Assembly: GCA_009777485.1 (NCBI GenBank)
Contig: WRLT01000002.1
Span: 1 to 64,000 of the forward strand
Length of the DNA: 64,000 nt
Source: Bacillota bacterium
GTDB lineage: Bacteria > Bacillota > Clostridia > Christensenellales > Pumilibacteraceae
Direction: 5' to 3'
The notes beneath the pieces are model-generated. The model was not told where the DNA came from, did not search any database, and saw only the letters and a list, made by a program, of their open reading frames with translations. A program made the position numbers and the translations under genes. Position 1 is the first letter of the stretch. Each line of letters starts with the position of its first letter. Shown here one piece after another: positions 21,665 to 39,883 of this stretch.

Positions 21665-21782
21665 TTGACAAAAGCTAAAGAACAGCGTATACTAAGTATG
21701 CAAGGTTAAACTTGCATATGCATGTGGCACGTAACCATTCGTGTCTACGTCGGGCTCTCTGTAAAGGGAGCCCATTTTTTTA
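21665..21782 (+). ncRNA. Candidate small RNA 1, copy 1 (promoter, RNA, terminator)
   Basis: A complete unit: TTGACA at 21665-21670, 17 bases, TATACT at 21688-21693, then about 80 transcribed bases ending in a GGGCTC/GAGCCC hairpin and a T run (21752-21781). Inside are hairpins GCAAG/CTTGC and GGCACG/CGTGTC. A second copy lies at 50835-50950. The two differ inside the terminator stem in a way that keeps it paired, which argues for function as RNA. No ORF fits. Confidence 0.65.
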
Positions 21783-21791: not shown

Positions 21792-21924
21792 TTGACTTTT
21801 AACAAGTAAGGGTGTATACTAATAGTGTGGTAAGCGAAAGCTTGCTGCGGAGCGTGGCAACGCGCTGGCCTGTTTTCTTCGCACTTAGCGAGGTCGCCCC
21901 CTGTTTTAAGCAGGGGGCTTTTTT
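21792..21924 (+). ncRNA. Candidate small RNA 2, copy 1
   Basis: Promoter TTGACT at 21792-21797, 17 bases, TATACT at 21815-21820. The RNA (from about 21827) folds into GTAAGC-GAAA-GCTTGC, GCGT-GGCA-ACGC, CTTCGC/GCGAGG and a strong terminator GCCCCCTG/CAGGGGGC plus six T (21896-21924). It is almost identical to the copy at 45908-46039, which precedes a ToxN-like ORF. Here the ORF that follows is cut to 12 codons. Confidence 0.7.
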
Positions 21925-22024: not shown

Positions 22025-22885
22025 ATGTCGCAGCAAAGTTGGCAGGAAAACTACGCAGATATTCTAAAAAAAGTCGATGCAGGTTATCGGGTTATCGGCA
22101 GTATGCGCCCAATCAGCGAGGATGTGGCGCGGGTTTTTTACGAGGAGTTTTCCATAGCGCATTGCCATAATTCAAATACGATAGAAGGCGCAACGTTTAC
22201 CTTTGACGAAACCAAACTTATTTTAAAAGAGGGCATGGTTTTTGCCGACCATTCCTTGCAAGAGCATATGGAAATACAGGGCTCTCACAGCGCGTTTTGG
22301 TTCATCTATGACAACATAAAAAATACCGAAAGCATCACAGAGGATTTTATTAAGCATATCCACGCTAAAACGCTGCCGGGAAAAAGCTACTCCGGGCAAT
22401 ACCGCGACATCAATGTATACATCGGTGATGCGTTTTCCGACAGGGTAACCTTTCAGCCGCCTCCGCCCGGTGCGGTGCCGCACAGGATGACGGAATACGT
22501 ACAAAAAATAAATGCCGATTTAAAAATCCTGCATGACTTTAAGACTGCCGAACAAAAAGATTGGAACAATTTTTTTCGCACAATGGCGGCGCACCACTGC
22601 GATTTTGAGCAAATCCACCCTTTTGTGGACGGGAACGGCCGCACGGGACGCTTACTGATGAATACGGAATTTATTAAGCTTGGTATACTGCCCATAGACA
22701 TTCGGTACGCAGAAAGAGAGCATTACTACGCCGCGCTTAAAAAATACGACCACAAGGCGCAATACAGCAACCGCAAAGAAAGTAAAACCGACGCAATGGC
22801 TAAATTATTTGCCGTTTCACAGCTAGCCAGCGTAAGTATTTGGCTTAAAATGTTTGCCTCTTACGCCGAAAGCGGCAAACAATAA
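22025..22885 (+). CDS. Fic-domain protein (AMP-transferase type), copy 1
   Basis: Fic proteins transfer AMP or a related group from a nucleotide onto a target hydroxyl. The full motif HPFVDGNGRTGR is near residue 200. An inhibitory helix motif (SNTIEG, near residue 50) sits N-terminal to the Fic core, so this is a self-inhibited class II protein and needs no separate antitoxin gene. The 286 residues end in FASYAESGKQ. The copy at 48200 is clearly related but carries a longer tail. The gene lies just outside the ICE, behind small RNA 2 and a palindromic promoter. Confidence 0.88.
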   Translation: MSQQSWQENYADILKKVDAGYRVIGSMRPISEDVARVFYEEFSIAHCHNSNTIEGATFTFDETKLILKEGMVFADHSLQEHMEIQGSHSAFWFIYDNIKNTESITEDFIKHIHAKTLPGKSYSGQYRDINVYIGDAFSDRVTFQPPPPGAVPHRMTEYVQKINADLKILHDFKTAEQKDWNNFFRTMAAHHCDFEQIHPFVDGNGRTGRLLMNTEFIKLGILPIDIRYAEREHYYAALKKYDHKAQYSNRKESKTDAMAKLFAVSQLASVSIWLKMFASYAESGKQ

Positions 22886-23019: not shown

Positions 23020-23096
23020 CGAGGTGTAGCGCAGCTTGGTAGCGCGCTTGGTTCGGGACCAAGAGGCCGCAGGTTCAAATCCTGTCACCTCGACCA
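23020..23096 (+). tRNA. tRNA-Pro (anticodon CGG)
   Basis: Acceptor arms CGAGGTG and CACCTCG pair perfectly; the anticodon stem is CTTGG/CCAAG with loop TTCGGGA (anticodon 23054-23056). The T-loop reads GGTTCAAATCC and the CCA end is encoded. It is the insertion target of the ICE; integration at its 3' part kept the gene whole. Confidence 0.97.
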
Positions 23097-23179
23097 CCGA
23101 ACCCCCAATACGGGGACGGATTAAATTGCGAATGACGTATCTGAGACGTACGTTATTTGCAATTTTTTATTTTGCGAAT
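23028..23179 (+). repeat. Left attachment repeat (attL)
   Basis: 152 bases identical to 50656-50807. The repeat covers the tRNA from its D-arm to the 3' end, the tRNA terminator and a few bases beyond. The distance between copies gives an element of 27,628 bases. Confidence 0.88.
23123..23169 (+). terminator. Terminator of tRNA-Pro(CGG)
   Basis: A 16-base stem (AAATTGCGAATGACGT with ACGTTATTTGCAATTT, two G-U pairs) runs into a T run. It is inside the att repeat, so a second copy lies at 50751-50797. Confidence 0.75.
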
Positions 23180-23239: not shown

Positions 23240-24106
23240 ATGACGAAGCCTGTATTTCAAAATGAAAGCCTTACCGCAACCGTTGAACGGTATCTTTTGC
23301 ATTGCAGCAATGTGAAGCGTTTAAACGCAGCTACGATTAAAGCCTATAAAATGGACTTTCAACATTTTATAAAATTTTTATCGGATAAAGGCCGTAACAA
23401 CATTGAGAGTATAGATAAAAAAATTGTAGCCGAGTACATCGGTTGCATCGAAGCAATGTGCGGCAGCGCTGCCGTTGCCTCGATGCGCAGAAGATACGCA
23501 AGCGTGCGTGCGTTTATAGGTTATTTAGAATCCGAAAAAATTATAGCTATATCGCCATTAAATAAATTTGCCGCAAAAAAACCTACGGCGCGGCCTGCAA
23601 AATTTTTAACGATTTTAGAAATCGAGGCAATGCTTTCGTATTTGCATACGCAAGAGGCAACCGATTTACGAGTAAGAAACCTTGCAATTTTCGAGCTGGT
23701 TTTTCACGGCTTAAAAAACTTTCAGTTGTGTAATTTAAAATTGACCGATGTTGATTATGTTTCGGGAATTATAACGGTTGCAGGCAAAAAAATCCGCATT
23801 GCAAACGCCGATGCGCGGAACGCAATCAAAGATTACGCTGTCGTTCGCGGCGTTTCCGATACGGATTATTTCTTTGTCAACGTCGGCGGTCGTAAGCTTC
23901 AAGACCAATCCGTTAGATATTTTATCGAACGCATCGGAAAAATCGTATTAAACAAACACATCACCCCGAAAATGCTGCGAGCTTCTTTCGCGGCCGAGCG
24001 GGAGAGAGCTTTGCGGTTTATCAATCCCCGCGACAGCATTCAAATTTGTAAAGATGTAAAGACGTCTTTACAAAATAACAGGAGCGTAAAAGTATGGGAA
24101 AGTTAA
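23240..24106 (+). CDS. Degenerate tyrosine recombinase-like protein
   Basis: Has the XerC/D layout: an N-terminal SAM-like core-binding domain (about residues 1-105) and a catalytic fold. Key residues are lost: the first active Arg (normally GLR) reads GLKNF, the HxLRH box reads TPKMLRASF with both His changed, and the tail with the HxxY part is gone. The last about 20 residues are encoded partly by a TGTAAAGA palindrome (24047-24072). It is either a dead gene or a DNA-binding protein without catalysis. Its ribosome site is AGAGGTG. The next gene starts inside its end. Confidence 0.7.
   Translation: MTKPVFQNESLTATVERYLLHCSNVKRLNAATIKAYKMDFQHFIKFLSDKGRNNIESIDKKIVAEYIGCIEAMCGSAAVASMRRRYASVRAFIGYLESEKIIAISPLNKFAAKKPTARPAKFLTILEIEAMLSYLHTQEATDLRVRNLAIFELVFHGLKNFQLCNLKLTDVDYVSGIITVAGKKIRIANADARNAIKDYAVVRGVSDTDYFFVNVGGRKLQDQSVRYFIERIGKIVLNKHITPKMLRASFAAERERALRFINPRDSIQICKDVKTSLQNNRSVKVWES
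24047..24072. repeat. TGTAAAGA palindrome inside a coding region
   Basis: Two forward units TGTAAAGA, a CG centre and one reverse unit TCTTTACA. It lies within the final codons of the recombinase-like gene and about 20 bases before the next start codon. Translated, it supplies KDVKTSL. Confidence 0.85.
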
Positions 24107-24508
24107 TAAATCCAATTATCAACAAGTATACGGCCATACCCAATTCGATTTTCAAAGACCAAAACCTTGACTACAAATGCCGCGGGGTTTTGGGAACGCT
24201 GATTTCGCTGCCAGACGGCTGGAATTTTTCAACTATCGGGCTATGCGCAATAGTGAAAGGGGATGGGAAAGCCTCTGTACGTGCAGCTTTGCAAAAACTA
24301 GAAGAGTTAGGATATTTAGAAAGAATATCAACCAAAGACCAAAAAGGATTATTTGCCGGATATGATTACAAAATCAGCATTCCGCCCGTTGTCCGAAAAT
24401 CGGACGACGGATAAACGGACGACGGATAAACGGACGACCGAAAAACCGATAACGGATAAACGGACAACCGAAAAATGGTCATCCGATAAACCGCCGCAAT
24501 ACATATAG
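24094..24508 (+). CDS. Helix-turn-helix replication-type protein, frameshifted
   Basis: The N-terminal part matches the common ICE/plasmid winged-helix protein: NSIFKDQNLDYKCRGVLG, then LPDGWNFS and ALQKLEELGYLERI. The first frame stops at 24414. From 24389 a +1 shifted frame stays open to a TAG at 24506-24508 and encodes a Thr/Asp/Lys/Arg repeat tail of RTTDKRTTDK type, which is what I would expect at the end of this family. So the gene probably carries a one-base indel (real or from sequencing) near 24380-24390. Confidence 0.65.
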
Positions 24509-24530
24509 AGGTTAAATTTATTTTAAGTTT

Positions 24531-24708
24531 GATAACACAAAGTAAAAATTATTACAGGTTCAACAATCCATGAGGGCGGCGCGCCCGTATCCGATAAAAT
24601 CATTTTTATCTTGTGTTCTCAAAAAAGCGAATATTGATGAATAATTATGCAAGGTTTACGCGGCGAGGCGCGGCGGAAAATTATGCAAAAGCGTGAATAA
24701 TTATACAA
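24531..24708. repeat. Hairpin and iteron-like repeats before ssb
   Basis: An imperfect inverted repeat (24531-24549 with 24602-24620) encloses about 52 bases. Three AATTATRCAA repeats follow at 24643, 24679 and 24699. This gap of about 240 bases contains no ORF. Such repeats next to an HTH gene and ssb could be a replication or regulatory site. Confidence 0.45.
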
Positions 24709-24749
24709 GATTTTAAAAGCGGTTAAGAGCCGCAAAGGAGATAAAAATA

Positions 24750-25460
24750 ATGGCAAACACAGTTTTAGTAGGCAGGGTAGCGCAAGGGCTTGAAACGCGG
24801 GAGGCGGGCGGCAAAAACGTCGGCAGCTTTTCAATCGCCGTTGATGGCAAAGAAAAGGACGGCAACGGTAAGCCGATACCTACCTTTTACAGCATCGAAA
24901 CGTGGGACGCAAAGCAGCAAGCGGTTTTGACCGAGCAACTCAAAACGGGCGAAACCGTTATGATAAAGGGGCAGCTTGCAATCGAAACCTACGACCGCGC
25001 CGAGGGCGGCAAAGGCACGGCTGTAAAGGTAGCAAGCCCCGATGTTACGTTTTTGGGAAAAGCTAACGCCGCCAAAGAGCAAATTTTTGTGGCAGGACGG
25101 CTTACAAAAGACGTTGAAGTTAAGAGCGTAGGAACGTCGGACAACCGCGTTGCAACGCTTTCTTTGGCCGAAAATTACGGCAAAGAAAAAACCAACTTCT
25201 ATGACATCGAAGTTTGGAACGAGCAAGCCGACATTATGGCTAAGCACTTAACTAAGGGCAGCATGATTAAGGCGGACGGTGAATTAAAAATCGAAACCTA
25301 CGACCGCGCCGACGGCAGCAAGGGAACGCGAGTAAAAATAATCAACCCAAACGTCAACTTTTTATCCAGCGCGGCGGGCAAAGGCGGTTCTGCGGCCGCA
25401 GGTGCTGCCGCTGCACCGACCGCAGCCAAAAAAGGCGCGGCATCAGGCGCAGCCAAATAA
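24750..25460 (+). CDS. Single-strand DNA-binding protein with two OB folds
   Basis: Two SSB-like OB domains in tandem: residues about 1-105 and 110-205. Each begins with a short strand like VLVGRV / IFVAGRL, then a FYSIETWD / FYDIEVWN stretch, and ends with a Gly-x-Leu, Ile-Glu-Thr-Tyr-Asp-Arg-Ala segment. The tail is Ala/Gly/Lys-rich and lacks the acidic tip that recruits partners in typical SSB. AAAGGAG precedes the start. It probably coats single-stranded element DNA during transfer or copying. Confidence 0.8.
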   Translation: MANTVLVGRVAQGLETREAGGKNVGSFSIAVDGKEKDGNGKPIPTFYSIETWDAKQQAVLTEQLKTGETVMIKGQLAIETYDRAEGGKGTAVKVASPDVTFLGKANAAKEQIFVAGRLTKDVEVKSVGTSDNRVATLSLAENYGKEKTNFYDIEVWNEQADIMAKHLTKGSMIKADGELKIETYDRADGSKGTRVKIINPNVNFLSSAAGKGGSAAAGAAAAPTAAKKGAASGAAK

Positions 25461-25478
25461 CATTTCACGAGGTGAGGT

Positions 25479-25619
25479 ATGGAAAGAGAAAGCGAAGATT
25501 TAGCCGCATTTAAAGATTTTTTGTCCGCGTATTTCGGTCAAAAAAGCGGCACGCGGCAAGACGAGGAAATCGACGAGGAAATCTTTATTGCGCCGGAGGA
25601 ATTGAGCCATGACGCATAA
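25479..25619 (+). CDS. Small acidic protein of unknown function
   Basis: 46 codons, ATG at 25479 with GAGGTGAGG upstream. It is acidic (DEEIDEEIF). Its last codons overlap the start of the ArdC fusion gene by 11 bases, so it is probably co-translated. No family is recognised. Confidence 0.6.
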   Translation: MERESEDLAAFKDFLSAYFGQKSGTRQDEEIDEEIFIAPEELSHDA

Positions 25620-28182
25620 GGAAAAAATCGAAATTGAACGCCAGGCAATCGCCGACAAGGTAATTGCCAGCATCGAGCGCGAACCGCTTACATGGTCTAG
25701 CGGTTGGCATAGGGTTAACGCTTGTCCGCACAATGCCAAAACCGGCAAGGTGTATAACGGCACCAATTTTTTGATTTTGTTAATTCAATCGGAAGATAAA
25801 GGCTATGCCGACCCGCGCTGGGTAACGTTTAACCAAGCAAAAGAGCTAGGCGCAAGCGTCAAAGCCGGTGAAAAGGCAACGCGTATTTTTCATTGGAACG
25901 AGTACGACATCAAAACTAAAACCGTGCCGGATTGGGACGCGCTGCGTAAGCTGTCGCTTGACGAGCAGCTGCGTTACCGCAGCGAAAATATTCGTTACAG
26001 CGTCAGCTATCATAGCGTGTTTAACGCCGAGCAGGTTGACGGCTTGGCCGAGCATAAACTTGAAACAATGAGCAGCGAGGAGCTTGCAAAGCAAAACACG
26101 CTTATCGAGCGCGTCCTGGCCGCATCGGCCGCGCCCATCCGTCATGAAGGGGGCAGGGCAATATATGACTGGGAAGGCGATTTTATACAGCTTCCGCAAG
26201 TAGAAAGCTTTAAATCTATGCAGGATTATTACGCTACCGCGCTGCATGAAATCGCACACAGCACCGGGCATAAAAGCCGCCTTAATCGCGGCTTTGAGAA
26301 AGAAACCCATGCCGACTATGCAAAGGAAGAGCTTAGAGCCGAGCTTGCCTCGATGTTTATGCAATCAGAGCTAGGGATTGTGTTAGACGGCGCGCATTTT
26401 GAAAATCACAGTGCCTATGTTCAAAGCTGGCTTAAAGCGATTAAAAACAACAAGGACGAGCTTTTTAAGGCAATTAAGGACGCAGGCGACATTGCCACCT
26501 ACATACACGAGCATTACGCCCGCGCTGATGCGGCGCACGACCAAGAGCACGCCGCTACCGTTTCGGAAAAAGAAAACATAAAAAAGGAATCTATTGCCGC
26601 AGTTAATCGCGCCGATGCCACGCACCGACAAAAGGAGAATACGCTTTGGCAAGCGTATTCCAAAGTTAAAGTCGACAATCCGGACGCGCTTGTTTTTTAC
26701 CGCATCGGGGATTTTTACGAACTTTACGGCGACGACGCGGTAACGGCGGCAAAAGAAATCGACCTTATTCTAACCAGTCGCGATGTCGGCTTAGAAAATC
26801 GCGTACCGATGTGCGGCGTACCGTTCCACGCAATGGAAAACTATTTAGGTAAGCTTGCTAGCAACGGCTATAAAATCGCGGTTTGCGAACCAAGTGGCGA
26901 GGTAAAAAATCACGGCGCGGTCGCGAAAGAAGAAAACACAAAAAAAGATGAGGAGAGCGAATTGACAAAGCAAGAACAATACCTTAAAGAGCGTGCTATG
27001 TGGGGCGATGGGTTTGATATAAATATCCGTCCTAACTTATCCGACTTTGACGATGCCTTTCGCGAAGCTTGGGAGCAAGCGCAGGAGCGCGGCGAAAATT
27101 TAAGTTTTTCGCAGTATGTTCAGAATGAACGTGAAGATTTTATATATTCACAAATTTCGGGTGAATTAGTTCAAACACACCGCGAATTTGTGAGCGCAAA
27201 GCTTACACCGTATCAACAAAAAAATCAAGACCGCATAGACGCAATAGAGCGAAACACGCCTGCGGAAATGAAAACCCTGCCGAATTGGTGCGTGTATAAG
27301 ACGTTTTACGATACACAAAGCAAGTCGCGTAAGAAGTTTATTTTAAAGGCGTTTGACGCGCCGCAGGGACAAAAGCGGGCAAGTTTTAACGACCCCGCAA
27401 CGTGGACGGATTTTGCGTCCGCGCTTAAATACGCCCGTGAGAACGGCTGCGAGGGGCTAAGCTTTGCCATGAAAGGCAGCGGGCTAAACTGCATTGATTT
27501 AGACGGTTGTTACGAAAACGGTGTTTACAGCAATTTAGCAAAAGCCGTTATGGGTGATTTAAAGGATACCTACGGCGAGCTGTCGCGCAGCGGAAACGGT
27601 TTGCACTATTTTCTAAAAGACGACCTTTTAGAAAACGGCAAATTTAAAAACCGCGACCGTGCCGACAAGCCGTCCATAGAGATATTTGACACATGGGGCT
27701 TTATTTCGATGACTGGCGCGCGTGTAAACGAAACCAGCAAGCTTTCCGCCGCCACGCCCGAACTGAAAGCTTTCTTGCAAGAAAGGGTAGGGGAGAAAGC
27801 ACCCGTTGTTAAAAAGCCTGCGTATACCAACACGGCGGCCGACAGTGAGGTAATAGAGCGCATTCGCCGTTCCAAAAAAGGCGCGGACTTCGATACGCTG
27901 TATAACGGAGGCAGTATGTTTTCTAAAAGCGGCGGCGCACCCGACAACAGCCGCAACGATTTTGCCATGCTGAATATTTTAGCCTTTTTTACCAACTGCG
28001 ACGCAAGCCAAATGGAACGCATCTTTCGTTCAAGCGCGCTGTATCGACCGGAGAAAGCCCAAGACTACATAACGCGGTCGGTTACTAACGCAATCGATAC
28101 ACTGCAAAAGCGGCCGACTAATTTCGGCGACGGGGCGGGGAACGGCAAGCCTTCGGGCGCAGGAGCAGGGGCGGGCAAGTAA
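25609..28182 (+). CDS. ArdC antirestriction - MutS_I - primase fusion protein
   Basis: Polyvalent 857-residue protein. Residues about 1-120 are an ArdC-type single-strand DNA-binding domain. Residues about 190-300 form a zincin with metal motif HEIAH. Near residue 345-430 is a MutS domain I look-alike, with FYRIGDFYELYGDD, which includes the Phe-x-Glu mismatch motif, and VPMCGVPFHA. The C-terminal about 330 residues resemble a phage/plasmid primase-polymerase: a CIDLDG acidic motif, then SGNGLHYF, IEIFDTWGF and the NILAFFTNCDASQM tail. ArdC proteins shield incoming DNA from restriction. The MutS part lacks all ATPase domains, so it cannot do full mismatch repair. Confidence 0.8.
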   Translation: MTHKEKIEIERQAIADKVIASIEREPLTWSSGWHRVNACPHNAKTGKVYNGTNFLILLIQSEDKGYADPRWVTFNQAKELGASVKAGEKATRIFHWNEYDIKTKTVPDWDALRKLSLDEQLRYRSENIRYSVSYHSVFNAEQVDGLAEHKLETMSSEELAKQNTLIERVLAASAAPIRHEGGRAIYDWEGDFIQLPQVESFKSMQDYYATALHEIAHSTGHKSRLNRGFEKETHADYAKEELRAELASMFMQSELGIVLDGAHFENHSAYVQSWLKAIKNNKDELFKAIKDAGDIATYIHEHYARADAAHDQEHAATVSEKENIKKESIAAVNRADATHRQKENTLWQAYSKVKVDNPDALVFYRIGDFYELYGDDAVTAAKEIDLILTSRDVGLENRVPMCGVPFHAMENYLGKLASNGYKIAVCEPSGEVKNHGAVAKEENTKKDEESELTKQEQYLKERAMWGDGFDINIRPNLSDFDDAFREAWEQAQERGENLSFSQYVQNEREDFIYSQISGELVQTHREFVSAKLTPYQQKNQDRIDAIERNTPAEMKTLPNWCVYKTFYDTQSKSRKKFILKAFDAPQGQKRASFNDPATWTDFASALKYARENGCEGLSFAMKGSGLNCIDLDGCYENGVYSNLAKAVMGDLKDTYGELSRSGNGLHYFLKDDLLENGKFKNRDRADKPSIEIFDTWGFISMTGARVNETSKLSAATPELKAFLQERVGEKAPVVKKPAYTNTAADSEVIERIRRSKKGADFDTLYNGGSMFSKSGGAPDNSRNDFAMLNILAFFTNCDASQMERIFRSSALYRPEKAQDYITRSVTNAIDTLQKRPTNFGDGAGNGKPSGAGAGAGK

Positions 28183-28518
28183 ATCCTCTTTGTGTTTTCA
28201 AGCCCAAAAAATTCTAACCGATTAGAAAAAGCGGGGTTCTAGGGGCGGCAGCCCCTGGCGCACGGCGCGGAGCCGCAAGCCCCCGAAAAAACGAGGCGTT
28301 ATCGATGCAAAACGCTTACTTTTTTACCCCAAATGTCAGGGAGCAGGATAAGAGGTGATACACTTTGCCCTTTTATAGCCGATTTGCATCTATATAGAAT
28401 GGCAAAAAAGTGTATCACTTTAACCCAAAACGTGTATCACGTTGTATCACCCTTTTTGGGGGAGAAGTCGGAAACCGACTTTCGTTAAAAAACACAGAAA
28501 AAAACAAGGAGTTTAACC
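28183..28518. other. Probable origin of transfer (oriT) region
   Basis: A 336-base gap just upstream of the mobilisation genes. It begins with a GC-rich hairpin zone (about 28230-28290). An inverted repeat follows: 28355-28369 with 28401-28418 (GTGATACACTTTGCC and its complement with a 3-base bulge). The core GTATCAC recurs directly at 28412, 28434 and 28444. Position and structure are those expected of oriT; the nick site cannot be placed from sequence alone. Confidence 0.55.
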
Positions 28519-28992
28519 GTGGCAAGACCTAAAAAACCCGATATTAAAAAGAACACGTTCTTAGTGCGCGTAGGCGACGACGATACGCTTACGCTGTTAG
28601 ACGCGCTTTTTAAAAGCGGGCTTTTTGCGTCCCGAAACGAGCTGATAAATCGCTGCTTAGATGCGGGCGCGGCGCAGCTGCACCGAACGGTTTTTACATC
28701 GAAGGGCAAAAAGCTAGCGGCGCCGCTTGCGCTGCCCGACACAAGCAACCCTTTCGATATCGGCCGCGCCTTAAAGCAAATCGAGCATACCACCGACGAT
28801 ATGTTTGTAGTCGCGCACATCATGGAGGATTTACTGACAACGCTTTTTAATGTCGAATACGCAAAGCTTAGCGGCGAGCCCGTCGCCGCTGACGATATGC
28901 TTTCCGGGCGCTTGGCGCAGCTGCCCCAAAAACTGCAAAGCGTTAAGGCTGAAATCATACGGGCAAAAATGTACAGGGAGGGCAAGCAATGA
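28519..28992 (+). CDS. MobC-like / ribbon-helix-helix relaxosome accessory protein
   Basis: 157 residues starting at GTG 28519 with an AAGGAG-type site. A basic N-terminus is followed by a short ribbon-helix-helix-like region (residues about 12-50, with SRNELINRCLD). The rest is helical. It sits between the probable oriT and the relaxase, and overlaps the relaxase start by 4 bases, so a role in binding oriT is likely. The family call rests on context and general pattern. Confidence 0.65.
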   Translation: MARPKKPDIKKNTFLVRVGDDDTLTLLDALFKSGLFASRNELINRCLDAGAAQLHRTVFTSKGKKLAAPLALPDTSNPFDIGRALKQIEHTTDDMFVVAHIMEDLLTTLFNVEYAKLSGEPVAADDMLSGRLAQLPQKLQSVKAEIIRAKMYREGKQ

Positions 28993-30281
28993 GCAAAGCT
29001 TTATTTAACATCGCGTACACCGCGAAAACACCGCCCGCGAAGTTGAAGGGCGAGGCACGCGCCGATTACATCGCGCGGCGCAGCTTTTACGATATGACGG
29101 CTGGGTACAATTATTTTGTCTACATGCTTAACGAGCGCAAAGTAGAGAAAAACAAGGACGCGCTGGATTACTATACGCGCGGCGGTACAAACAGCGGCTT
29201 GTTTAACGCGAAAGGCAGGCTTTCGGCAGCTGATGCGGGCGCGCTTAAAGAACGCCTAAAAAGCACCGATAGCATTATTTGGCACGGCTTTTTAAGCTTC
29301 GACGAGGAAACCAGCAAGGGCTTTACCACACAAGAGCAGGCAATTAAATTTATGCGGCAAAGCTTTAACGCCTTTATCGACCGCACGCACTTAAAGCGCG
29401 ACAATATCGAGCTTTTTGCTGCCCTGCATACCGATACGGCGCACCATCATCACATTCATTTTGCTTTTTTCGAGAAAGAGCCGAAACGCCGCGACAAAAA
29501 CGGCAAACTGGGCTACACAAAAGTGGGCAGCTTCGAGCAAAAGGCCATTGACAATTATTTAGTGGCGGCCAATATGCACCTAGACGAAAACGCCTACGAA
29601 TACTACAGCGCGCGCGACCGTGCTATGGAAAGCCTTAAAAGCATAAAGCTGTCTGCTTTGAGTGAGGAGAAAGCTTTGCGTCAAAAGCTTTCCGAGCTTG
29701 CCCGCATATTACCCCAAGAGGGGCGGCTGCAATACAATGCAGAGCAAATCGCGCCTTTTCACAAAGACATAGACGCGGCCGTAAACTTGCTAATTTGTTC
29801 TAACCCTGCCGCGCTTAGCGCGCACACGGAAATGCAGCGGCAGTTCGCGCTTAAAGAAGCAGAGGTTTTGCGGCTTGCCCAAGAGAACGGCTTGTCGTAT
29901 GTCAATAACCGCAGGCTTACCAAAGCACAAATGCAAGAGCTGTTTGTAAACGGACAAGCAAAAAACATTACGCAAGAGGGCATTAAGCTAGACAACATAG
30001 ACTACATCGCTAAGCTGCGACTAGACTATCAGGCGCGTTTAGGCAACTACGTTTTGGGCTTAGTAAAAAGCATGCACAAGGAATACCGACAGCCGCGCCG
30101 CGCAAAGGTAAACGACTTACACTTAAAAATCCGTTCACGCCGACGCGGGCGCGGCGCGCGCGAGATACTGCACAATGTTTTAAAATCACTAGACACTACG
30201 ATGCACGGCATAAGTCGCGACTTTACCAAAAGCTTAAAGCAAATCGAACACGAAATACAATATGAGGTGGCACATGGATAA
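28989..30281 (+). CDS. MobL-type relaxase
   Basis: Nicks oriT and leads the strand into the recipient. The histidine triad is clear: ALHTDTAHHHHIHFAF near residue 145. The N-terminal tyrosine region (RSFYDMTAGYNYFVYML, residues about 30-47) offers candidate nucleophile tyrosines. Helical basic sequence follows to the C-terminus. The layout (430 residues) matches the MobL (MobP-like) group found in Firmicutes elements. The coupling protein gene starts inside its last codons. Confidence 0.8.
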   Translation: MSKALFNIAYTAKTPPAKLKGEARADYIARRSFYDMTAGYNYFVYMLNERKVEKNKDALDYYTRGGTNSGLFNAKGRLSAADAGALKERLKSTDSIIWHGFLSFDEETSKGFTTQEQAIKFMRQSFNAFIDRTHLKRDNIELFAALHTDTAHHHHIHFAFFEKEPKRRDKNGKLGYTKVGSFEQKAIDNYLVAANMHLDENAYEYYSARDRAMESLKSIKLSALSEEKALRQKLSELARILPQEGRLQYNAEQIAPFHKDIDAAVNLLICSNPAALSAHTEMQRQFALKEAEVLRLAQENGLSYVNNRRLTKAQMQELFVNGQAKNITQEGIKLDNIDYIAKLRLDYQARLGNYVLGLVKSMHKEYRQPRRAKVNDLHLKIRSRRRGRGAREILHNVLKSLDTTMHGISRDFTKSLKQIEHEIQYEVAHG

Positions 30282-32502
30282 AAACAAGAAAAAAATAATG
30301 GTTATCGTACTACTGGCAATCGGCGCGGTTGCGCTGCTGTTCTTTTCTGCGTTTATCGTTTCGCTGATATTCCGCAGCAGCTTTTCGTTGGCTAATCCGT
30401 ATGTTTACGCGCTTTGGGGCGCACTTATCGGCATAGCGTTAATCGCGCTTTTGTTGAATCACAAAACGCGCATGGGTAAACGCGTTTTAAAGGTCAACAA
30501 AGACTTAGAAGATTCGCGCTGGCTGACGTGGGGCGAGATTAAGAAAAACAAAGGCCTTACCGTTACCAAGCTTTCGCGGCTTAGTACCGTTAAAGACGGC
30601 GTGCCGATTTATGCAGAAAAAAAGGGCGAGGATATACAAATTGTGTTGGCAAAAACCATACATACTTTGGTTGTCGGAACAACGGGCAGCGGCAAAACTA
30701 CTACGTTTGTAGACCCTGCCGTGCAAATTTTATCGCGCTGCCAGACAAAGCCGTGCATGGTTATCACCGACCCGAAGGGCGAGATATACAAACACCACGC
30801 CGAAAATCTCAAAGAGCAAGGCTATACGGTAAGCTTAATTGATTTAGCGGACATTTACCATTCCACGCATTGGAATCCGTTTAACGATGTTTGGAAGATG
30901 ACCGACCGTATACAGTCGGCAATCGATTCAAAATCTCTATGCTGGAATCGCGGGCGGTACGAATTTGACGGCCGCAAATACGATACGTTCAGCGAGGCGG
31001 AACGGGAGTTTGGCGTCTTTGTGCAAGAGCTGACGGACGAAATATATTTAGGCATTCAAGATTTAATCTATGCTGCTTGTCCGATAGAAAACAAACACGA
31101 TTCCACCTGGCAAAAAGGCGCGCGCGATTTAATATTCGGGCTTGCGCTAGCGATGTGGGAGGACGTGCGCGACGGCTACATGACCCGCAAGCAGTTCAAC
31201 TTGTTTAATTTATCCGAAAACATCGCCAAGTATTGCACAGGGGATTTCGACCAAATTAAAGAGTATTTTAATAACCGCGATAGTTTTTCAAAAGCGAAGA
31301 ACGCCGCCAACACCGTGCTGGTTTCGCAAGACCGCACGCTTACCTCATACTTAGGCGATGTTAACGCCTATTTCAACTGGATGGCAGATAAGGGAATTGT
31401 CGCGCTTACCAGTTCTAACGAGATTGAGTTTGACGAGTTTGACGAGCGGCCGAATGCACTGTTTTTAAAAATTCCCGATGAAAAAGACAACCGCCACAAG
31501 CTTATCGCGCTGTTTATTACGCAGATGTACAAGGCGCTGGTTGCCAAAGCCGCGCTGAATAATCGGCGCGGGCTTACCAAAGAGGCGGAGCTTTTTCGCA
31601 ATGTGTATTTTATCATGGATGAGTTCGGCAATATGCCCAAGTTTCACCACATCGACAAAATTATAACCGTCGGCCGCAGCCGTAAGATTTTTATGCTGCC
31701 CGTCATTCAAGATTTTAAGCAGCTAGAAAACCGCTACGACAAAGAAATTGCCGCAATTATCAAGTCGAACTGCCCGATTAAGATTTTTATTCAAGCGGGC
31801 GACAAGGAAACCACCGAGGAGTTTTCCGCGCTGTGCGGCAAACACAAAGTAAAAAAGGTAAGCTATTCCGAACAAAAGGAGTTAAGCATTTCAACGTCGG
31901 CCGAAGAAAAGCCGCTGATATTTCCCTCAGAGCTTGCCAACCTAAACGACGCGGCGGCGGGGCGCATGGGCAACGCGGTGGTGCTAGCAGCGGGAAAGAA
32001 TCCGCTGCGTTCAAGGTTTACGCCGTGGTTTAAGGCGCAAGAGCTGTACAGCATAGGCGATGCGGCCGAGGACAAAAAACAAGCGGAGGTTTTTGACGAG
32101 GCGGATTATTACTACGATATAACCAAGCGCAGCGCATTTGTTGCGGAGCTTGCCGCGCTTGAAGAGGAGGCGGACGGCTTTGCGGACGAGCTTTTAGAGC
32201 AGCTTAATCTCGAAGAGGAGAACGGCGGCAATGCCGACGGCCAAGTTACCGCGATTGCCAAGCGCATTTATATTAACTTAGACAAGCTGATTGTGGCCAA
32301 GCTGAAAGACAAGCTTTCGATAGGAGATTTTGCGCGGCTTGTAAAAATGGATATTTCTGCAAAGATGGCGTTTTTAGAACAGCTGGTTAAATCGGCGGTA
32401 GAAAAGAAAAACAATTTCTTATTATTCGATTTAGCATACATAAAAAATCACATTCGCACGATGTGCTTTCCCGAAAGCCAGGACAACACATCGGGTGCTT
32501 AG
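30274..32502 (+). CDS. VirD4/TraG-type coupling protein
   Basis: Inner-membrane ATPase that feeds the relaxase-DNA complex into the channel. I place the start at ATG 30274, seven bases after GAGGTGG; a second ATG at 30262 lies inside the relaxase and lacks a site. Two membrane helices lie in the first 70 residues. Walker A GTTGSGKTT is near 130, Walker B FIMDEFGNMPKF near 445 and the VIQDFKQLENRY segment follows. The 742 residues end in a charged tail. Confidence 0.9.
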   Translation: MDKNKKKIMVIVLLAIGAVALLFFSAFIVSLIFRSSFSLANPYVYALWGALIGIALIALLLNHKTRMGKRVLKVNKDLEDSRWLTWGEIKKNKGLTVTKLSRLSTVKDGVPIYAEKKGEDIQIVLAKTIHTLVVGTTGSGKTTTFVDPAVQILSRCQTKPCMVITDPKGEIYKHHAENLKEQGYTVSLIDLADIYHSTHWNPFNDVWKMTDRIQSAIDSKSLCWNRGRYEFDGRKYDTFSEAEREFGVFVQELTDEIYLGIQDLIYAACPIENKHDSTWQKGARDLIFGLALAMWEDVRDGYMTRKQFNLFNLSENIAKYCTGDFDQIKEYFNNRDSFSKAKNAANTVLVSQDRTLTSYLGDVNAYFNWMADKGIVALTSSNEIEFDEFDERPNALFLKIPDEKDNRHKLIALFITQMYKALVAKAALNNRRGLTKEAELFRNVYFIMDEFGNMPKFHHIDKIITVGRSRKIFMLPVIQDFKQLENRYDKEIAAIIKSNCPIKIFIQAGDKETTEEFSALCGKHKVKKVSYSEQKELSISTSAEEKPLIFPSELANLNDAAAGRMGNAVVLAAGKNPLRSRFTPWFKAQELYSIGDAAEDKKQAEVFDEADYYYDITKRSAFVAELAALEEEADGFADELLEQLNLEEENGGNADGQVTAIAKRIYINLDKLIVAKLKDKLSIGDFARLVKMDISAKMAFLEQLVKSAVEKKNNFLLFDLAYIKNHIRTMCFPESQDNTSGA

Positions 32503-32532
32503 ATAAATTAAAAAATTTCGGAGGTAATCATT

Positions 32533-35500
32533 ATGAACACAAAGAAAAAAACCATTGCACTGCTGCCTTTGTTGGCTGTATTAACGCTTTTTGCGGTGTG
32601 CGCAGCTTTCTTCCCGCGTAGCACAAAGGAGGCAAGCGCAAATACCACAACAACCATTCTGAACGAGCAAAGGGCGAGGGTTTTGCACTATTCAACTGGG
32701 AGTAGTACATTCCTATATTCGCAAAATTTAACGGCAACTATAAATCAAGCAAGAGTTTCAGATGCGGAAAGTGTTTTGCTAACTGTAAGCTTTTCCCAAA
32801 ACGAATTATCTCAAAGCGGCACCCGCTACATTAGAGGGCATACAATTGCTATTTTGTATCGTAATAACAACCGCGTTGCGGCTATGGAGGTTTGCCGCAT
32901 TAGCATCAATGGAATAGGTAATTATGTTACAGATAGCAGTGGGTGGGATTGCCCGTATGATTGTGAGTTTTGCAGTTTGCCGATACAAAATCGCGGAGTT
33001 TCCAGCGGTTCAGTTACATTCCCACCTATTACACAAAACGGCATTTATGAGTTGAAAATAGAAGCGCATTACCATAGAGATGGAAATACTGGCTACCGCG
33101 AATATTCTAGTAGTCGTTTTACCATTGACAGAGTAACGCCAGAAATTTTAATGCCGCTTGGTGCACCGTTTCTTAACGGTGGACCACCTAATCCAAGCTA
33201 TGGGTTTCGTGTAAATTACGGTGTTTCCGGAGCAACGCTTTATTATAAATATAACGCAACAGGATATATAAATTGCACTATATTAAATTATGATTCATGG
33301 TTGGAAATGCCTGCAATAATGAATGATGCGCCTATGTTAAATTTTTCAATTCAAGGAAAGTACTGGATAAATGAGCGGTTTCCTGCGGGAAATGGTTTTC
33401 AAAATCCACATAGTGATTTTTGGACGGAAGGATTTTACAGTTTTATGGTGGTTAGCAATGCCGGGCGCATAAGCAGCCATAGTAATTTTAGCATAGATGG
33501 AACTCCTCCCGTTATAAGCTCTATTATTCCAAACGATGGTTTTACCAATTCTGCTTTTACTGTTTGGGCTAGCGATTCAATAAGCGGCGTGGCAAGCTTT
33601 CAGTTTTCAAAAAACGGCGGTACATGGACGAATATAAACGGAACGTCGCGCACGATTAACGTATCCGACGGTGAGGGAGTGTATCAGTTTCGAGCAACAG
33701 ACCGTGCAGGAAATACTTCGCCGATTTATTCGATTACACTGGATTTAACGCTGCCTACGGGTTCGATTACCAACGCGGCGGGCACTGCACTCGGCGCGTA
33801 CACAAACGCCGCGTTCCGCGCAAATTTCAGCGATGCCTTGTCGGGCATGGATTATTGCCAAATAATGCGCCCTAATACTACGGCGTGGCAAAGCTACACC
33901 GCAGGCACACTTATAGCGGCCGACAGCGGCGACGGGCACTATCAGTTTCGCGGCTACGACCGCGCCGGGAACGTCCGCAGCGTATCCATTACGCTGGTTT
34001 TTAATCCGCCGATTGTTGCACTAAGCACAGACGCAGCGGTTACCAACGCCGCATTTACGTTTACGGCCGAAAGCGATTATTTTGCCCGAATGTATTACAG
34101 CCTTAACAGCACAGACGATTTTACCACTTTGCCGCAGCGCAGCTTTGAAGTTTGGCGCAACACGGCAAACAACGGTGTTTGGCGTTTTTACGCCGAGGAT
34201 TTGGCAGGCAACGTATCCGAGCTAAAAACAATCGTTTTGGATACGATTGCGCCTGCGCATAATACGTTGCCGCAATACACTAACCAAAATATCATCTTCG
34301 CGCCGACGGACGCTTTTGGCATCGCGGCCGTTTATTACCGATTCGGCCGAACTGGAAGCTTTACCGTATTTACTGCCGAAGCCTTTACGATAGCGGCATC
34401 GGAAGAAAATAACGGAGAGCATTGGTTTTACGCAGCGGATGTCGCGGGCAACCTTTCCGAGCCGCAGCGCGTAGTATTAAGAGTAATCGACACGTTTGGC
34501 AATCTAGCAGAAATCCAAAACGCGTATAAGGTAACGTCGTGGTATACGGCAACTTTGCCGGGGCGCATTTTTAACACTACCACGCGCAACGTGGCGGGCG
34601 TGTATTCGTTTGCCGATTATGAAACCGCCTTGCGCTTTGCAATCGCAATGGAATTTGAATTTCGCGTACAGTCGATTACAGGCGGCTTTTTGTATGTTAC
34701 GGCATCCAACGAAAGCATTGCGCAAATTTACGCCTCGCGCGCCCTCCTTGACCCGATTGTCGAACTGTACGCTAAGGGCTACCTATCGGGCGAGCAACGC
34801 TTTGTAAACGGACATAACAACTATCAAACCCCTGTCAATGCTGATTTAGTAGCCGACCCTACCGCCTTAACGCGGCAAACACATACCCTGCCGGCATTTT
34901 TAAGTGCGTATGCCGCATTGCCGCTGTATATATGCCCGCACGAGTTTAGGTTTAGAGAGCTTAGCGGCGGTATTCCGCAAAGCGTAGAGCTTTTACTGCT
35001 GGCAAGCGATACGCAAACGCTGACCTTCTTGCCCTTATCCGTGCCTTTCGACACACGGCTGCTTAACTTTCTGCAAAGCACGGACGCGGCGCGGCAGGGC
35101 TATTTTTTGGTTAGCGAAAGCGATGCCGCAGGAAATATAGAGCAGTACATCATTTACCTAGACTTAACGCCGCCCGAACTTAACGCTGTTGCGACGCTTG
35201 GCAGCGGCGCGCAGCAGAGCCTTACCTTCGATGCGGCTTATATAAACACCTTTGCGGGAACGCTGTACTATACGGGCTTAGAGCTTACAGGCTTTTTTGA
35301 TAACGACGAATTTTCGATGCTGCGCATATCGGGGCGCGGCATAAACACCGTATTCTTTGCACACGAGCAGCTGCCGCACCTGCATTTCGATGCAGATTAT
35401 TACGGCCGCTACCGTATCGAGCTGTACGACCGAAGCTTAAATACGCTATTATTTGACGTGTGGATTGCGGGTGAGCCGCCGCGCCTATCTACAACCAGCT

Positions 35501-37446
35501 TGGCGGCCGATGCGCCGGAGGCACGCTTTACCATTTTTGTGCCGGATACGTTTAACGCAATCACCGCACTGGAATTTTACAAAATAGACCACAACGGCAT
35601 ATACGAAAGGCTGCACTTTGACGATGCGGGCAACGCGGTATCGGCGGCACGCCTAACTTACACCGTAACCAGCGGCGGCAAGTACGTTTTTATCATAGAG
35701 GACTTATTCGGCAGACGGATAGAAACGCGCCCCGTGTTTTACTTAAAAGGGCTGCCTGTCGGTATGCTTTTGGGCGTAACGGACGGCGGCGTAACCAACC
35801 GCGACGTTTCGCTGTCCTTTTCGCCTGCCAACACGCTGATTGTATACACGGTAAACGGCGCAACGCGCCATATTTTTAACGATTATTCGGTTTCCATGCT
35901 AAACAATACACTTACGGCCGTAATATCCGCTTCGGAGGAAACATCGTTTCACTTTGTGTTTTTCTTATTCAAAACCGATGAGCCGTCTTTGTTTGTCGAG
36001 TATACCTTCGAGATAGATTGCATTATTTCGGATATTTGGATTTTTAACAACGAGGGCGGGACGGTTGCGGAAAATTCGGCAACCACAAAGCCGTTTTTTA
36101 TAACATGGACGGAGGCGGGCACTACGTTGCGCTACCACACTTCCGCAACGCCCGGCGGAGCTTTGGCCGCCGTGCGCTATACGCCCGGAACGGTGTTATA
36201 TGACGACGCGGTGTATTTTTTCTCGCAGCGCGATTATGTCGGCAACGTTAAGGAGTTTTCTGTGCAGTTAGAAACACATATTGCCTACCGCATCACAGGT
36301 AATCACAACGTGCTTTCGGACGGCGCGATAATTGCAAACAATCCGCTAACGGTTACGCTGCTAAAACCGCTTTCGGCTTTTAGCGTAGCTAATGCGGACG
36401 GCTTTACTATACAAAACGGCGGCACGCTGTTCTTAGACGGAACGTACCAGCTTAGCGCGACCGACTATTTCGGCAACACCTTAACGCTGCGGGTTATTAT
36501 ACACACCGCGCCGCCCGAAATTAGGCTTGACGGCGTATCGGCGGGCGGCGTTACAAACGGCAGCGTTACGGTGCGCTTTGAGAACCATGTAACCGCGCAT
36601 CTAACGGATAACGCAGGGCGGGTTATCCGTGAGGTAAACAGCGGAGCGGAGTTTTCCGAACACGGCGATTACCGCATCCGCGCTGAGGACTTTGCGGGCA
36701 ACCAAAGCTTTGCCGCATTTAGTATTAAAAAGCAAGTAAACTTTTTGGCCAGCGTGCCCAGCGGCGCGCTAGTAGGCGAGGAAGTAAGCATCGAGTTTTT
36801 TGACGAGCTGCATACGCATGAGGTAACGCTAAACGGTGCGCCGTTAACGCCGAATTTGCGTTATGCGGCGGCGGGGCATTACGAGATTTTTGCTGAGGAT
36901 GCCGTAGGAAACGCGCTGCACTTTAATTTTACTATCATACCGCCGCGCAGCCAAAGCTTTACGCTAGACGTGCCGAGCGGCTTTTCGGTGCATTCGGTAA
37001 TTTTGGACGGCGCAAACTTAGGAATCTTTGGCGAGGCGCAGCAGCTGGTATTAGAGGCGGAAGGGCTGTACGCGCTGACGTTTGTTAATGCGGCAAACGG
37101 TGCGGCGTTCAGCTTAGAGGTAACCATAGACGATACGCCGCCAACGGTATCGATTGCGCAAGACGGCGGGGTAGTGGTAATCAGCGACCCTTCAAAGCAA
37201 AACATACAGGTTTTATTAGAACGGAACGGACAAGCCGTCGCGTACACGATGGGCGAGCGCCTTTCGGACGTAGGCACGTACAGGCTTACCATCACCGACG
37301 ACGTGGGCAATGTCAACACTTACGAATTTGAAATCATCTACCGCTTAAATACTGCGGCAATAGTGCTGATAGTGCTTGCGTGCGTGATTGGCGCGGCCGT
37401 GCTTATCCTAATCATCCGCGCACGGTTAAAACCGAAAATAAAATAG
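32533..37446 (+). CDS. Very large Ig-like surface protein of the ICE
   Basis: 1637 residues. A signal peptide (hydrophobic core, cut near residue 36 at ASA) is followed by many tandem beta-sandwich modules, with the recurring DRAGN / DLAGN / DVAGN signature that marks Ig-like surface repeats. A single C-terminal membrane helix and a short basic tail anchor it; there is no LPxTG. GGAGG precedes the ATG. It lies between the coupling protein and the VirB2-like gene, so it is probably made with the transfer apparatus and could act in mating contact. That role is inference. Confidence 0.78.
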   Translation: MNTKKKTIALLPLLAVLTLFAVCAAFFPRSTKEASANTTTTILNEQRARVLHYSTGSSTFLYSQNLTATINQARVSDAESVLLTVSFSQNELSQSGTRYIRGHTIAILYRNNNRVAAMEVCRISINGIGNYVTDSSGWDCPYDCEFCSLPIQNRGVSSGSVTFPPITQNGIYELKIEAHYHRDGNTGYREYSSSRFTIDRVTPEILMPLGAPFLNGGPPNPSYGFRVNYGVSGATLYYKYNATGYINCTILNYDSWLEMPAIMNDAPMLNFSIQGKYWINERFPAGNGFQNPHSDFWTEGFYSFMVVSNAGRISSHSNFSIDGTPPVISSIIPNDGFTNSAFTVWASDSISGVASFQFSKNGGTWTNINGTSRTINVSDGEGVYQFRATDRAGNTSPIYSITLDLTLPTGSITNAAGTALGAYTNAAFRANFSDALSGMDYCQIMRPNTTAWQSYTAGTLIAADSGDGHYQFRGYDRAGNVRSVSITLVFNPPIVALSTDAAVTNAAFTFTAESDYFARMYYSLNSTDDFTTLPQRSFEVWRNTANNGVWRFYAEDLAGNVSELKTIVLDTIAPAHNTLPQYTNQNIIFAPTDAFGIAAVYYRFGRTGSFTVFTAEAFTIAASEENNGEHWFYAADVAGNLSEPQRVVLRVIDTFGNLAEIQNAYKVTSWYTATLPGRIFNTTTRNVAGVYSFADYETALRFAIAMEFEFRVQSITGGFLYVTASNESIAQIYASRALLDPIVELYAKGYLSGEQRFVNGHNNYQTPVNADLVADPTALTRQTHTLPAFLSAYAALPLYICPHEFRFRELSGGIPQSVELLLLASDTQTLTFLPLSVPFDTRLLNFLQSTDAARQGYFLVSESDAAGNIEQYIIYLDLTPPELNAVATLGSGAQQSLTFDAAYINTFAGTLYYTGLELTGFFDNDEFSMLRISGRGINTVFFAHEQLPHLHFDADYYGRYRIELYDRSLNTLLFDVWIAGEPPRLSTTSLAADAPEARFTIFVPDTFNAITALEFYKIDHNGIYERLHFDDAGNAVSAARLTYTVTSGGKYVFIIEDLFGRRIETRPVFYLKGLPVGMLLGVTDGGVTNRDVSLSFSPANTLIVYTVNGATRHIFNDYSVSMLNNTLTAVISASEETSFHFVFFLFKTDEPSLFVEYTFEIDCIISDIWIFNNEGGTVAENSATTKPFFITWTEAGTTLRYHTSATPGGALAAVRYTPGTVLYDDAVYFFSQRDYVGNVKEFSVQLETHIAYRITGNHNVLSDGAIIANNPLTVTLLKPLSAFSVANADGFTIQNGGTLFLDGTYQLSATDYFGNTLTLRVIIHTAPPEIRLDGVSAGGVTNGSVTVRFENHVTAHLTDNAGRVIREVNSGAEFSEHGDYRIRAEDFAGNQSFAAFSIKKQVNFLASVPSGALVGEEVSIEFFDELHTHEVTLNGAPLTPNLRYAAAGHYEIFAEDAVGNALHFNFTIIPPRSQSFTLDVPSGFSVHSVILDGANLGIFGEAQQLVLEAEGLYALTFVNAANGAAFSLEVTIDDTPPTVSIAQDGGVVVISDPSKQNIQVLLERNGQAVAYTMGERLSDVGTYRLTITDDVGNVNTYEFEIIYRLNTAAIVLIVLACVIGAAVLILIIRARLKPKIK

Positions 37447-37532
37447 GCTAAACAACAAGCCCCGCCACTAAAATTTGAGCGGCGGGAAAGCTTGCATACA
37501 TAAAAAAATCTTAAAAAGGAGGTAACTGGCAA
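37447..37532. other. Hairpin between surface-protein and VirB2-like genes
   Basis: CCCGCC and GGCGGG (around 37461-37488) form a hairpin without a T run; then the strong ribosome site AAAGGAGG precedes the next gene. Read-through into the transfer genes is likely. Confidence 0.4.
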
Positions 37533-37799
37533 ATGGGCGGAGATTTTAATAATATTACCGATATGATAAACGAGCTGTACCGTCAGCTTTGGGGTCCGCT
37601 GCTGGGCGTGTTTTTGGGCGCGGCAGGGCTGTTGGGGCTTTGGATAGGGCTTAAATTTGTTTTTGCGGGCGGCGATGAGCAGAAAGTAAAAAAAGCAAAA
37701 GAGCAAGTAAAATACTTTGTTATCGGCATAGTAGCCATATTTGTTATCACGGCAATATTGCCGTTGGTAATAGCAGCGTTTATGAACTGGGCGCGCTAA
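37533..37799 (+). CDS. VirB2/TrbC-like small membrane protein
   Basis: 88 residues with two membrane helices (about 22-45 and 63-83) separated by a charged loop (GGDEQKVKKAKEQVK). This is the usual form of pilin-like VirB2/TrbC proteins in Gram-positive conjugation systems. There is no cleavable signal. Position just before the VirB6-VirB4 block (with an accessory island between) supports the role. Confidence 0.6.
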   Translation: MGGDFNNITDMINELYRQLWGPLLGVFLGAAGLLGLWIGLKFVFAGGDEQKVKKAKEQVKYFVIGIVAIFVITAILPLVIAAFMNWAR

Positions 37800-37967
37800 A
37801 TTACTAAAAAATGGCAATTCGCTACGTCTTACGCGCTGTGTCAGTATTTGCCTGGCGTCGCTGTCCGATATTTTGGCAGCGGTGCGGCAAACTAGCCCGA
37901 AAGCACTGCCTACGGCGCGCTGAGTCAGAATTTCACTAAAAAACACAAAACAAAGCAGAGGATTTAT
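37800..37967. other. Gap with a short repeat, copy 1
   Basis: No ORF. A 20-base segment GGCGCGCTGAGTCAGAATTT at the right side (37916-37935) recurs at 38533-38552, just before the next plus-strand small membrane gene. This suggests that each plus-strand gene of the island was inserted or duplicated with the same leader piece. Confidence 0.5.
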
Positions 37968-38430: not shown

Positions 38431-38490
38431 GCGCGTATTATCTCATTATTTGCTTGCTTTTGTCAATTAAACTAAGCTTTAATGTAGTTT

Positions 38491-38516
38491 TGTAAAGATG
38501 TAAAGACGTCTTTACA
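38491..38516. repeat. TGTAAAGA palindrome between divergent small genes
   Basis: Two forward units, CG centre, one reverse unit; identical in form to 24047-24072 and 39066-39091. It lies in the divergent gap between the minus gene starting at 38430 and the plus gene starting at 38585. Confidence 0.85.
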
Positions 38517-38584
38517 AAAAACCTGCCCTTGCGGCGCGCTGAGTCAGAATTTCGCGGTATCTTAATAGTAAAAAGGAGACTTGT

Positions 38585-39006: not shown

Positions 39007-39065
39007 GCTTTTATTATCCCATAATCCATACAAAATGTCAAGATTTGAAAACTTAAAAGCAGTTT

Positions 39066-39872: not shown

Positions 39873-39883
39873 AAAATACATAA

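What the first reader, a model, noticed from the sequence alone, without database searches (positions are those of the whole stretch)
21665..21782. Duplicated small RNA 1 with stem-preserving differences
Two units (21665-21782 and 50835-50950) each have a TTGACA-17-TATACT promoter, two inner hairpins and a terminator. They differ in the terminator arms but keep pairing, while the inner hairpin GGCACG...CGTGTC is unchanged. Each lies upstream of a tRNA-Pro gene, and each is followed by intact or broken small RNA 2. I do not recognise this RNA.
Basis: seen in the sequence. Interest (0 to 1): 0.6.

Follow-up and report, generated by a model that had tools for sequence, protein, structure and literature searches.

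The report
Stray RNA antidotes to mobile-element toxin
The two small RNA genes look like stand-alone relatives of an RNA antidote that, elsewhere in the same stretch of DNA, sits in front of a toxin gene carried by a mobile element, so they may protect the cell from that kind of toxin.

Summary
In detail: two 115-nt promoter-to-terminator units, 103/115 identical, strongly folded (z -6.6 and -5.5). RNA1 matches no Rfam family at the gathering cut-off.

Following it outward gave a mechanism. "Small RNA 2", its neighbour, has another copy (97.5%) inside an integrative conjugative element at 45908-46038, directly before ORF 46040-46918. That protein misses Pfam's ToxN model, but its N-terminal domain has the ToxN/MazF fold (best structural matches: the type III toxins AbiQ and two ToxN) and aligns with a ToxN profile far above decoys. 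Of 8 relatives of this gene that I accept, in 7 genomes, 7 have the same promoter/multi-hairpin RNA/terminator unit in front. Two of those RNAs are of RNA1's two-hairpin kind. A covariance model from RNA1-type units finds the toxin-linked units and orphan units in other genomes, and the helices covary.

Best reading: RNA1 and the first RNA2 copy are solitary relatives of RNA antitoxins of a divergent type III toxin-antitoxin system, whose antitoxin multiplies as whole transcription units, not as repeats inside one transcript. Neutralisation of the toxin, and a protective role for the orphans, are inferred. The tRNA-Pro association comes from the element's integration and tRNA duplication.

The parts
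21665..21779 (+). RNA1 copy 1: promoter (-35 at 21665, -10 ending 21693), P1, P2, terminator; no toxin gene directly behind it
   Evidence: R1 and R3 model hits
50835..50949 (+). RNA1 copy 2, 103/115 identical to copy 1
21792..21923 (+). RNA2 copy 1 (three hairpins and terminator); orphan. Followed by 12 nt identical to the start of the toxin gene and then unrelated sequence: a toxin-less derivative
   Evidence: (21776-21936 matches 45892-46051 at 97.5%)
45908..46038 (+). RNA2 copy 2, inside the conjugative element, directly before the toxin-like gene
46040..46918 (+). toxin-like gene (P0002, 292 aa): N-terminal ToxN/MazF-fold domain, basic C-terminal extension
50951..50994 (+). remnant of RNA2 promoter region behind RNA1 copy 2
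   Evidence: matches 45876-45920, 91%
22025..22885 (+). Fic-family gene behind RNA2 copy 1; its two ends match sequence near the second Fic gene of the element (48200-49249)
23027..23179 (+). left att-like repeat: 3' part of tRNA-Pro(CGG) and flank, 152/153 identical to 50655-50807
50655..50807 (+). right att-like repeat with a tRNA-Pro remnant; RNA1 copy 2 begins 28 nt further on
23240..50497 (.). integrative conjugative element: integrases at both ends (23240-24106 +, 49478-50497 -), SSB, VirD4-like (30262-32502), VirB4-like (41957-44608), ParA (44770-45555), RNA2 and toxin-like gene, Fic
51140..51216 (+). tRNA-Pro(AGG) downstream of RNA1 copy 2; 90% identical region to the tRNA-Pro(CGG) locus

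Best explanation
RNA1 is a stand-alone (orphan) member of a family of short promoter-hairpins-terminator RNA genes whose toxin-linked members are the RNA antitoxins of a divergent type III toxin-antitoxin system on conjugative elements. In the toxin-linked form, RNA polymerase starts at the strong promoter, mostly stops at the terminator and makes an abundant folded RNA; occasional read-through gives the toxin, a ToxN/MazF-fold protein (probably an RNA-cutting enzyme), which the RNA binds and holds inactive. Loss of the element would stop RNA supply and free the toxin. In this genome the conjugative element carries RNA2 plus toxin, while RNA1 (two copies) and a toxin-less RNA2 copy lie outside it. 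The most likely role of these orphans is to keep supplying antidote in trans, making the cell immune to such elements. Shown: anatomy, homology of the RNAs, covariation, position before toxin-like genes, ToxN-like fold and sequence. Inferred: transcription, RNA-protein binding, RNase activity, which toxin RNA1 answers to, immunity.
For: Position: of 8 accepted P0002-family loci in 7 genomes, 7 have promoter + multi-hairpin RNA + terminator just before the gene start; the eighth (G066:C53) lacks the N-terminal start. RNA1 kinship: G232 and G344 toxin genes are preceded by two-hairpin units with P1 GCAAGG...CCTTTGC. Model R1 (RNA1 x2, G059_77B, G232, G344) also scores the three-hairpin units it was not built from (E 8e-9 to 0.004), and R2 (three-hairpin) scores both RNA1 copies at E 2-3e-10; promoter and terminator columns contribute. 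P1 of RNA1 (GCAAGGTTAAACTTGC) differs by one base from P1 of some G059 units. Structure: 17 of 24 pairs with double changes in 13 two-hairpin units (shuffles 9.7, 0/500); 15 of 29 in 12 three-hairpin units (shuffles 7.5, 0/500). Orphan conservation: RNA1 and G059_77B, in different genera, share a 28-nt identical P2 stretch while P1 changed in a compensated way (GCAAG/CTTGC to GCGCG/CGCGC). Toxin: hhalign against ToxN loci found with PF13958, E 2.9e-5, score 39.5 against a best of 24.4 in 200 column-permuted decoys; VIA-align top three are AbiQ Z 7.8, E. coli ToxN 7.1, ToxN 2xd0 7.0, then MazF/CcdB. A relative in G616 (hhalign E 6.2e-7) is preceded by a 48-nt tandem repeat x1.9 and a terminator-like hairpin, the classical type III layout. 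Toxin loss is visible at RNA2 copy 1.
Against: No toxin lies beside RNA1; its partner is unknown. Foldseek alone gave no PDB match at E <= 0.001; the model is middling (pLDDT 61, pTM 0.55, one of five models good) and Z under 8 can be a common arrangement. Pfam, NCBIfam and PADLOC give the protein no hit that counts. The RNAs are not in-transcript tandem repeats and no conserved pseudoknot was found, both textbook type III traits. Orphans such as G346, G150, G122, G299, G078 and G370 are in genomes not among those with toxin hits, which also suits a housekeeping sRNA. The A8 rows were partly chosen by a structure-aware model; the five-row seed alone covaries weakly (6 pairs, shuffles 2.7, 7/500). 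No transcript data.
Confidence: 0.6

Rival explanations
1. RNA1 is a chromosomal regulatory small RNA of this bacterial order; mobile elements captured copies and put a toxin behind them, and orphans have a housekeeping role unrelated to toxins.
For: Orphan two-hairpin units at E 1e-12 or better lie beside unrelated genes in G232:C8, G346 (two), G150, G122, G299, G370, G078; P2 of RNA1 is identical over 28 nt in another genus.
Against: Units are patchy (22 of 392 genomes at E <= 0.001) and absent from the other two genomes of the own genus by DNA search; neighbourhoods are not conserved; P2 differs widely between units.
Confidence: 0.2
2. The RNA is not an antitoxin but a leader/attenuator: its terminator simply keeps the downstream gene low, and orphans are leaders whose gene was lost.
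For: The terminator abuts the gene start in toxin-linked loci; three-hairpin units have promoter spacers complementary to their terminator 5' arm (own score 52, 0 of 1000 shuffles reach it), which could act as an anti-terminator in read-through transcripts.
Against: A plain attenuator does not explain six complete promoter-terminator units in a row before one gene (G059) nor conserved orphans.
Confidence: 0.15
3. RNA1 copies are non-functional relics scattered by conjugative-element traffic through tRNA-Pro.
For: Both copies lie at the edges of element-derived DNA, and RNA2 is broken behind copy 2.
Against: Both copies keep intact promoter, hairpins and terminator; terminator differences preserve pairing; compensated P1 change in G059_77B.
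Confidence: 0.05

Closest known systems
Type III toxin-antitoxin systems ToxIN / AbiQ / CptIN / TenpIN
   Same: promoter, structured RNA, Rho-independent terminator, then a ToxN/MazF-fold protein; found on mobile elements
   Different: RNA is a single run of 2-3 different hairpins plus terminator instead of short tandem pseudoknot repeats in one transcript; whole units are duplicated; protein is about 280-290 aa with a basic C-terminal extension and misses PF13958; solitary RNA units exist
AbiF/RCd22 of Clostridioides difficile (PMC12373285; abstract start and found passages read)
   Same: non-coding RNA with its own promoter and terminator before a toxic protein, active in trans by direct RNA-protein binding, read-through transcription
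   Different: the protein there is an Abi_2/AbiF with links to Cas13, not ToxN fold; the abiF RNA motif (RF03085) is not matched here
Orphan antitoxins / anti-addiction modules of type II systems (recalled; the listing names papers using these terms)
   Same: chromosomal antidote without toxin that could cancel a mobile element's addiction module
   Different: those are proteins; here the candidate antidote is RNA

Membership tests
Type III TA (locus 45908-46918: RNA2 + P0002) | toxin with ToxN/AbiQ fold | tested here: met
   VIA-align best three are AbiQ Z 7.8 (129 aligned), 7d8o 7.1, 2xd0 7.0; hhalign to ToxN profile above 200 decoys. Moderate: Foldseek gave nothing at E <= 0.001
Type III TA (locus 45908-46918) | Pfam ToxN_toxin (PF13958) match | tested here: not met
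   no hit at E <= 10 for P0002; G000 not hit by PF13958
Type III TA (locus 45908-46918) | Rho-independent terminator between RNA and toxin gene | tested here: met
   same layout in 7 of 8 family loci
Type III TA (locus 45908-46918) | antitoxin made of tandem short repeats in one transcript | tested here: not met
   no tandem repeat in 45860-46060; the G616 relative does have one
Type III TA (locus 45908-46918) | antitoxin repeat folds as a pseudoknot | tested here: inconclusive
   no pseudoknot search on RNA2; in RNA1-type units a loop-loop match of 4 nt or more occurs in 3 of 6 tested
Type III TA (locus 45908-46918) | toxin is an endoribonuclease inhibited by, and processing, the RNA | not testable with these tools
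   needs experiment
Type III antitoxin (RNA1 itself) | cognate toxin gene directly downstream | tested here: not met
   RNA1 copy 1 is followed by RNA2 and Fic, copy 2 by an RNA2 remnant and tRNA-Pro; so RNA1 is called a relative, not a member
Rfam release 15 families | match at gathering score | tested here: not met
   no RNA1 or RNA2 match in the window; none on the units in 14 related loci; permissive scan of 21600-22050 gave only sub-threshold matches
Gut-1 RNA (RF01706) | match to the Rfam model | tested here: not met
   Gut-1 matches 51257-51336, a separate place, not RNA1

The most novel reading that the evidence does not exclude
A new type III-like system in which the RNA antidote is a compact multi-hairpin RNA that spreads and diversifies as complete promoter-to-terminator genes, so that chromosomes collect a library of different stand-alone RNA antidotes (RNA1, RNA2 copy 1, the G059 arrays) that immunise the cell against the toxins of incoming conjugative elements.
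Probability: 0.35. Interest if true: 0.75.

Novelty: new variant of a known kind. Interest (0 to 1): 0.6.

Why it matters
If right, it adds a ToxN-fold toxin family that Pfam, NCBIfam and PADLOC models do not recognise, with an RNA antitoxin built differently from the known pseudoknot repeats. It would also be a case of solitary RNA antitoxins on chromosomes, which would make RNA-based immunity to addiction by mobile elements directly testable: express the toxin with and without RNA1 or RNA2 in trans.

Tried and rejected
tRNA-Pro association as part of the function: rejected; homologues lie beside unrelated genes and duplication explains it. Known Rfam family: none. Fic as the toxin partner: not supported, because the P0002-type gene, not Fic, follows the RNA in 7 of 8 family loci. 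Kissing loops between P1 (GUUA) and P2 (UAAC) as a general feature: only 3 of 6 tested units have 4 nt or more. Pattern CGTAACCATTCG in 74 genomes: 17 genomes matched, but by inspection only the G000 and G059 matches are RNA units. Model hits near E 0.001-0.01 and some stronger ones (e.g. G084, G225, G194, G061, G336, G402, G022, G030, G004, G066:C4) look like other promoters or hairpins and are not counted; G390 and G211 (E 1e-5 to 1e-4) are one other hairpin element and were not counted either. P0002 matches in G060 and G143 (E about 5e-4) lie in other proteins and were dropped. First full-length AlphaFold model was poor (pLDDT 48); the second used residues 1-174. Foldseek absence of ToxN is told above. 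Viral contigs: no relatives or exact RNA matches. Plasmids: none. G034 has an RNA unit before a 168-aa protein that looks ToxN-like by eye, but profile comparison gave E 0.09 and 0.18: left as a lead.

Full report
Observation. The two units are real and as described: each has TTGACA-17-TATACT, two hairpins and a terminator, 103/115 identical, and folds far better than shuffles (z -6.57 and -5.52). The terminator differences keep pairing but are one-sided. The tRNA-Pro genes lie 190 nt (copy 2) and 1.24 kb (copy 1) downstream.

Setting. The window lies in a 2.0-Mb draft genome. Copy 1 follows recF. Between the tRNA-Pro loci lies an integrative conjugative element: integrases at both ends, VirB4, VirD4, ParA, Fic, bounded by a 153-nt repeat holding the tRNA-Pro 3' part, 152/153 identical. 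RNA2 behind copy 1 matches 45892-46051 inside the element at 97.5%, and the match ends 12 nt into the ORF that follows there; the DNA between RNA2 copy 1 and tRNA-Pro also matches the element at the two ends of its second Fic gene. So copy 1 is followed by a toxin-less derivative of the element's RNA2-toxin region, and copy 2 by a short remnant of RNA2.

The gene behind RNA2. P0002 (292 aa) has no Pfam, NCBIfam or PADLOC hit that counts. Search of 74 genomes of the family gave 4 genomes with a match, 5 places; search of 396 of the order gave 7 genomes, 9 places. After dropping two chance matches (G060, G143) and counting the pieces in G344 and the duplicated fragment in G189 with their main copies, 8 loci in 7 genomes remain: G000, G066 (two), G059, G139, G189, G232, G344. 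Wait-free count of frames: five are open (G000, G066:C19, G139, G189, G232); three are broken. Seven of the 8 are preceded by promoter, multi-hairpin RNA and terminator. Several lie by ParA or VirB4 genes.

Why a type III toxin. Four loci found with PF13958 were aligned, and that profile recovers solved ToxN and AbiQ chains. hhalign of the P0002 family against it gives E 2.9e-5 over residues 1-55; 200 column-permuted decoys reach 24.4 at most against 39.5. AlphaFold on residues 1-174 with four sequences gave pLDDT 61, pTM 0.55. Foldseek found nothing at E <= 0.001, but realignment of its candidates put AbiQ (Z 7.8), E. coli ToxN (7.1) and ToxN 2xd0 (7.0) first, followed by MazF, Kid and CcdB. 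Type III toxins share that fold (PMC5086642, sections 2, 4.3, 5 and 7 read). A relative in G616, found among 236 genomes of the class, aligns over residues 1-127 (E 6.2e-7) and is preceded by a 48-nt tandem repeat, 1.9 copies, and a terminator-like hairpin, the classical layout.

RNA1 in the family. G232 and G344 toxin genes carry two-hairpin units like RNA1. Model R1 found 28 of 392 genomes at E <= 0.01; model R3, from 13 two-hairpin units, found 22 of 392 at E <= 0.001. The strong hits, beyond the window and toxin-linked units, are orphans in G059:C77, G232:C8, G346 (two), G150, G122, G299, G370 and G078, beside unrelated genes (G059:C77). Pair counts: 17 of 24 pairs with double changes against 9.7 in shuffles (0/500) and 5-7 in slid versions; three-hairpin units 15 of 29 against 7.5. 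The rows of A8 were partly selected by model R1, so this is not independent of the structure; the seed alone is weak. RNA1 and G059_77B share 28 identical nt at P2 with a compensated P1, which points to selection on an orphan. In G059 six units stand in a row before the broken toxin gene, two more at C77 and two at C15.

Mechanism and limits. Analogy with type III systems and with AbiF/RCd22 (PMC12373285, passages read) gives: RNA in excess, read-through toxin, inhibition by binding. No expression or binding data exist here. RNA1 lacks an adjacent toxin, so it is called a relative of the antitoxins, not a member. The RNAs lack in-transcript repeats, unlike textbook type III antitoxins, hence 'new variant'. 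Literature searches (listings) did not show this RNA or this toxin family; that is not proof that none is in print.

Noticed in passing
45908-46038 and three-hairpin units in G059, G066, G139, G189: The promoter spacer is complementary to the 5' arm of the unit's own terminator (e.g. 11 nt in G059, 8 nt in G139); own sum 52 against at most 38 in 1000 shuffles and 2 of 720 permutations; absent in two-hairpin units. Possible anti-terminator in read-through transcripts.
   Followed up: partly
45808-45846, 48132-48169, 49261-49299, 21968-21996: A near-palindromic TAAAGATG...CATCTTTA sequence recurs at four places in or next to the element; could be an operator or partition site.
   Followed up: no
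51257-51336: Gut-1 RNA (RF01706) match just above gathering score.
   Followed up: no
15140-15272 (-): Weak R1 hit (E 2e-4): TTGACA-17-TATAAT, a long hairpin and a strong terminator between two genes; perhaps another small RNA.
   Followed up: partly
20240-20404: Inverted repeat with 47-nt arms, 91% complementary, before recF.
   Followed up: no
L114 1500-2169 (G034): RNA unit with P1 GTACAAGGTTAAACTTGC followed by a 168-aa protein that looks ToxN-like by eye but is not confirmed by profiles.
   Followed up: partly
L156 (G059:C15): A further pair of orphan three-hairpin units, the second without a clear terminator.
   Followed up: partly
L080 1304-1388: SAM riboswitch match in the G189 contig.
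   Followed up: no
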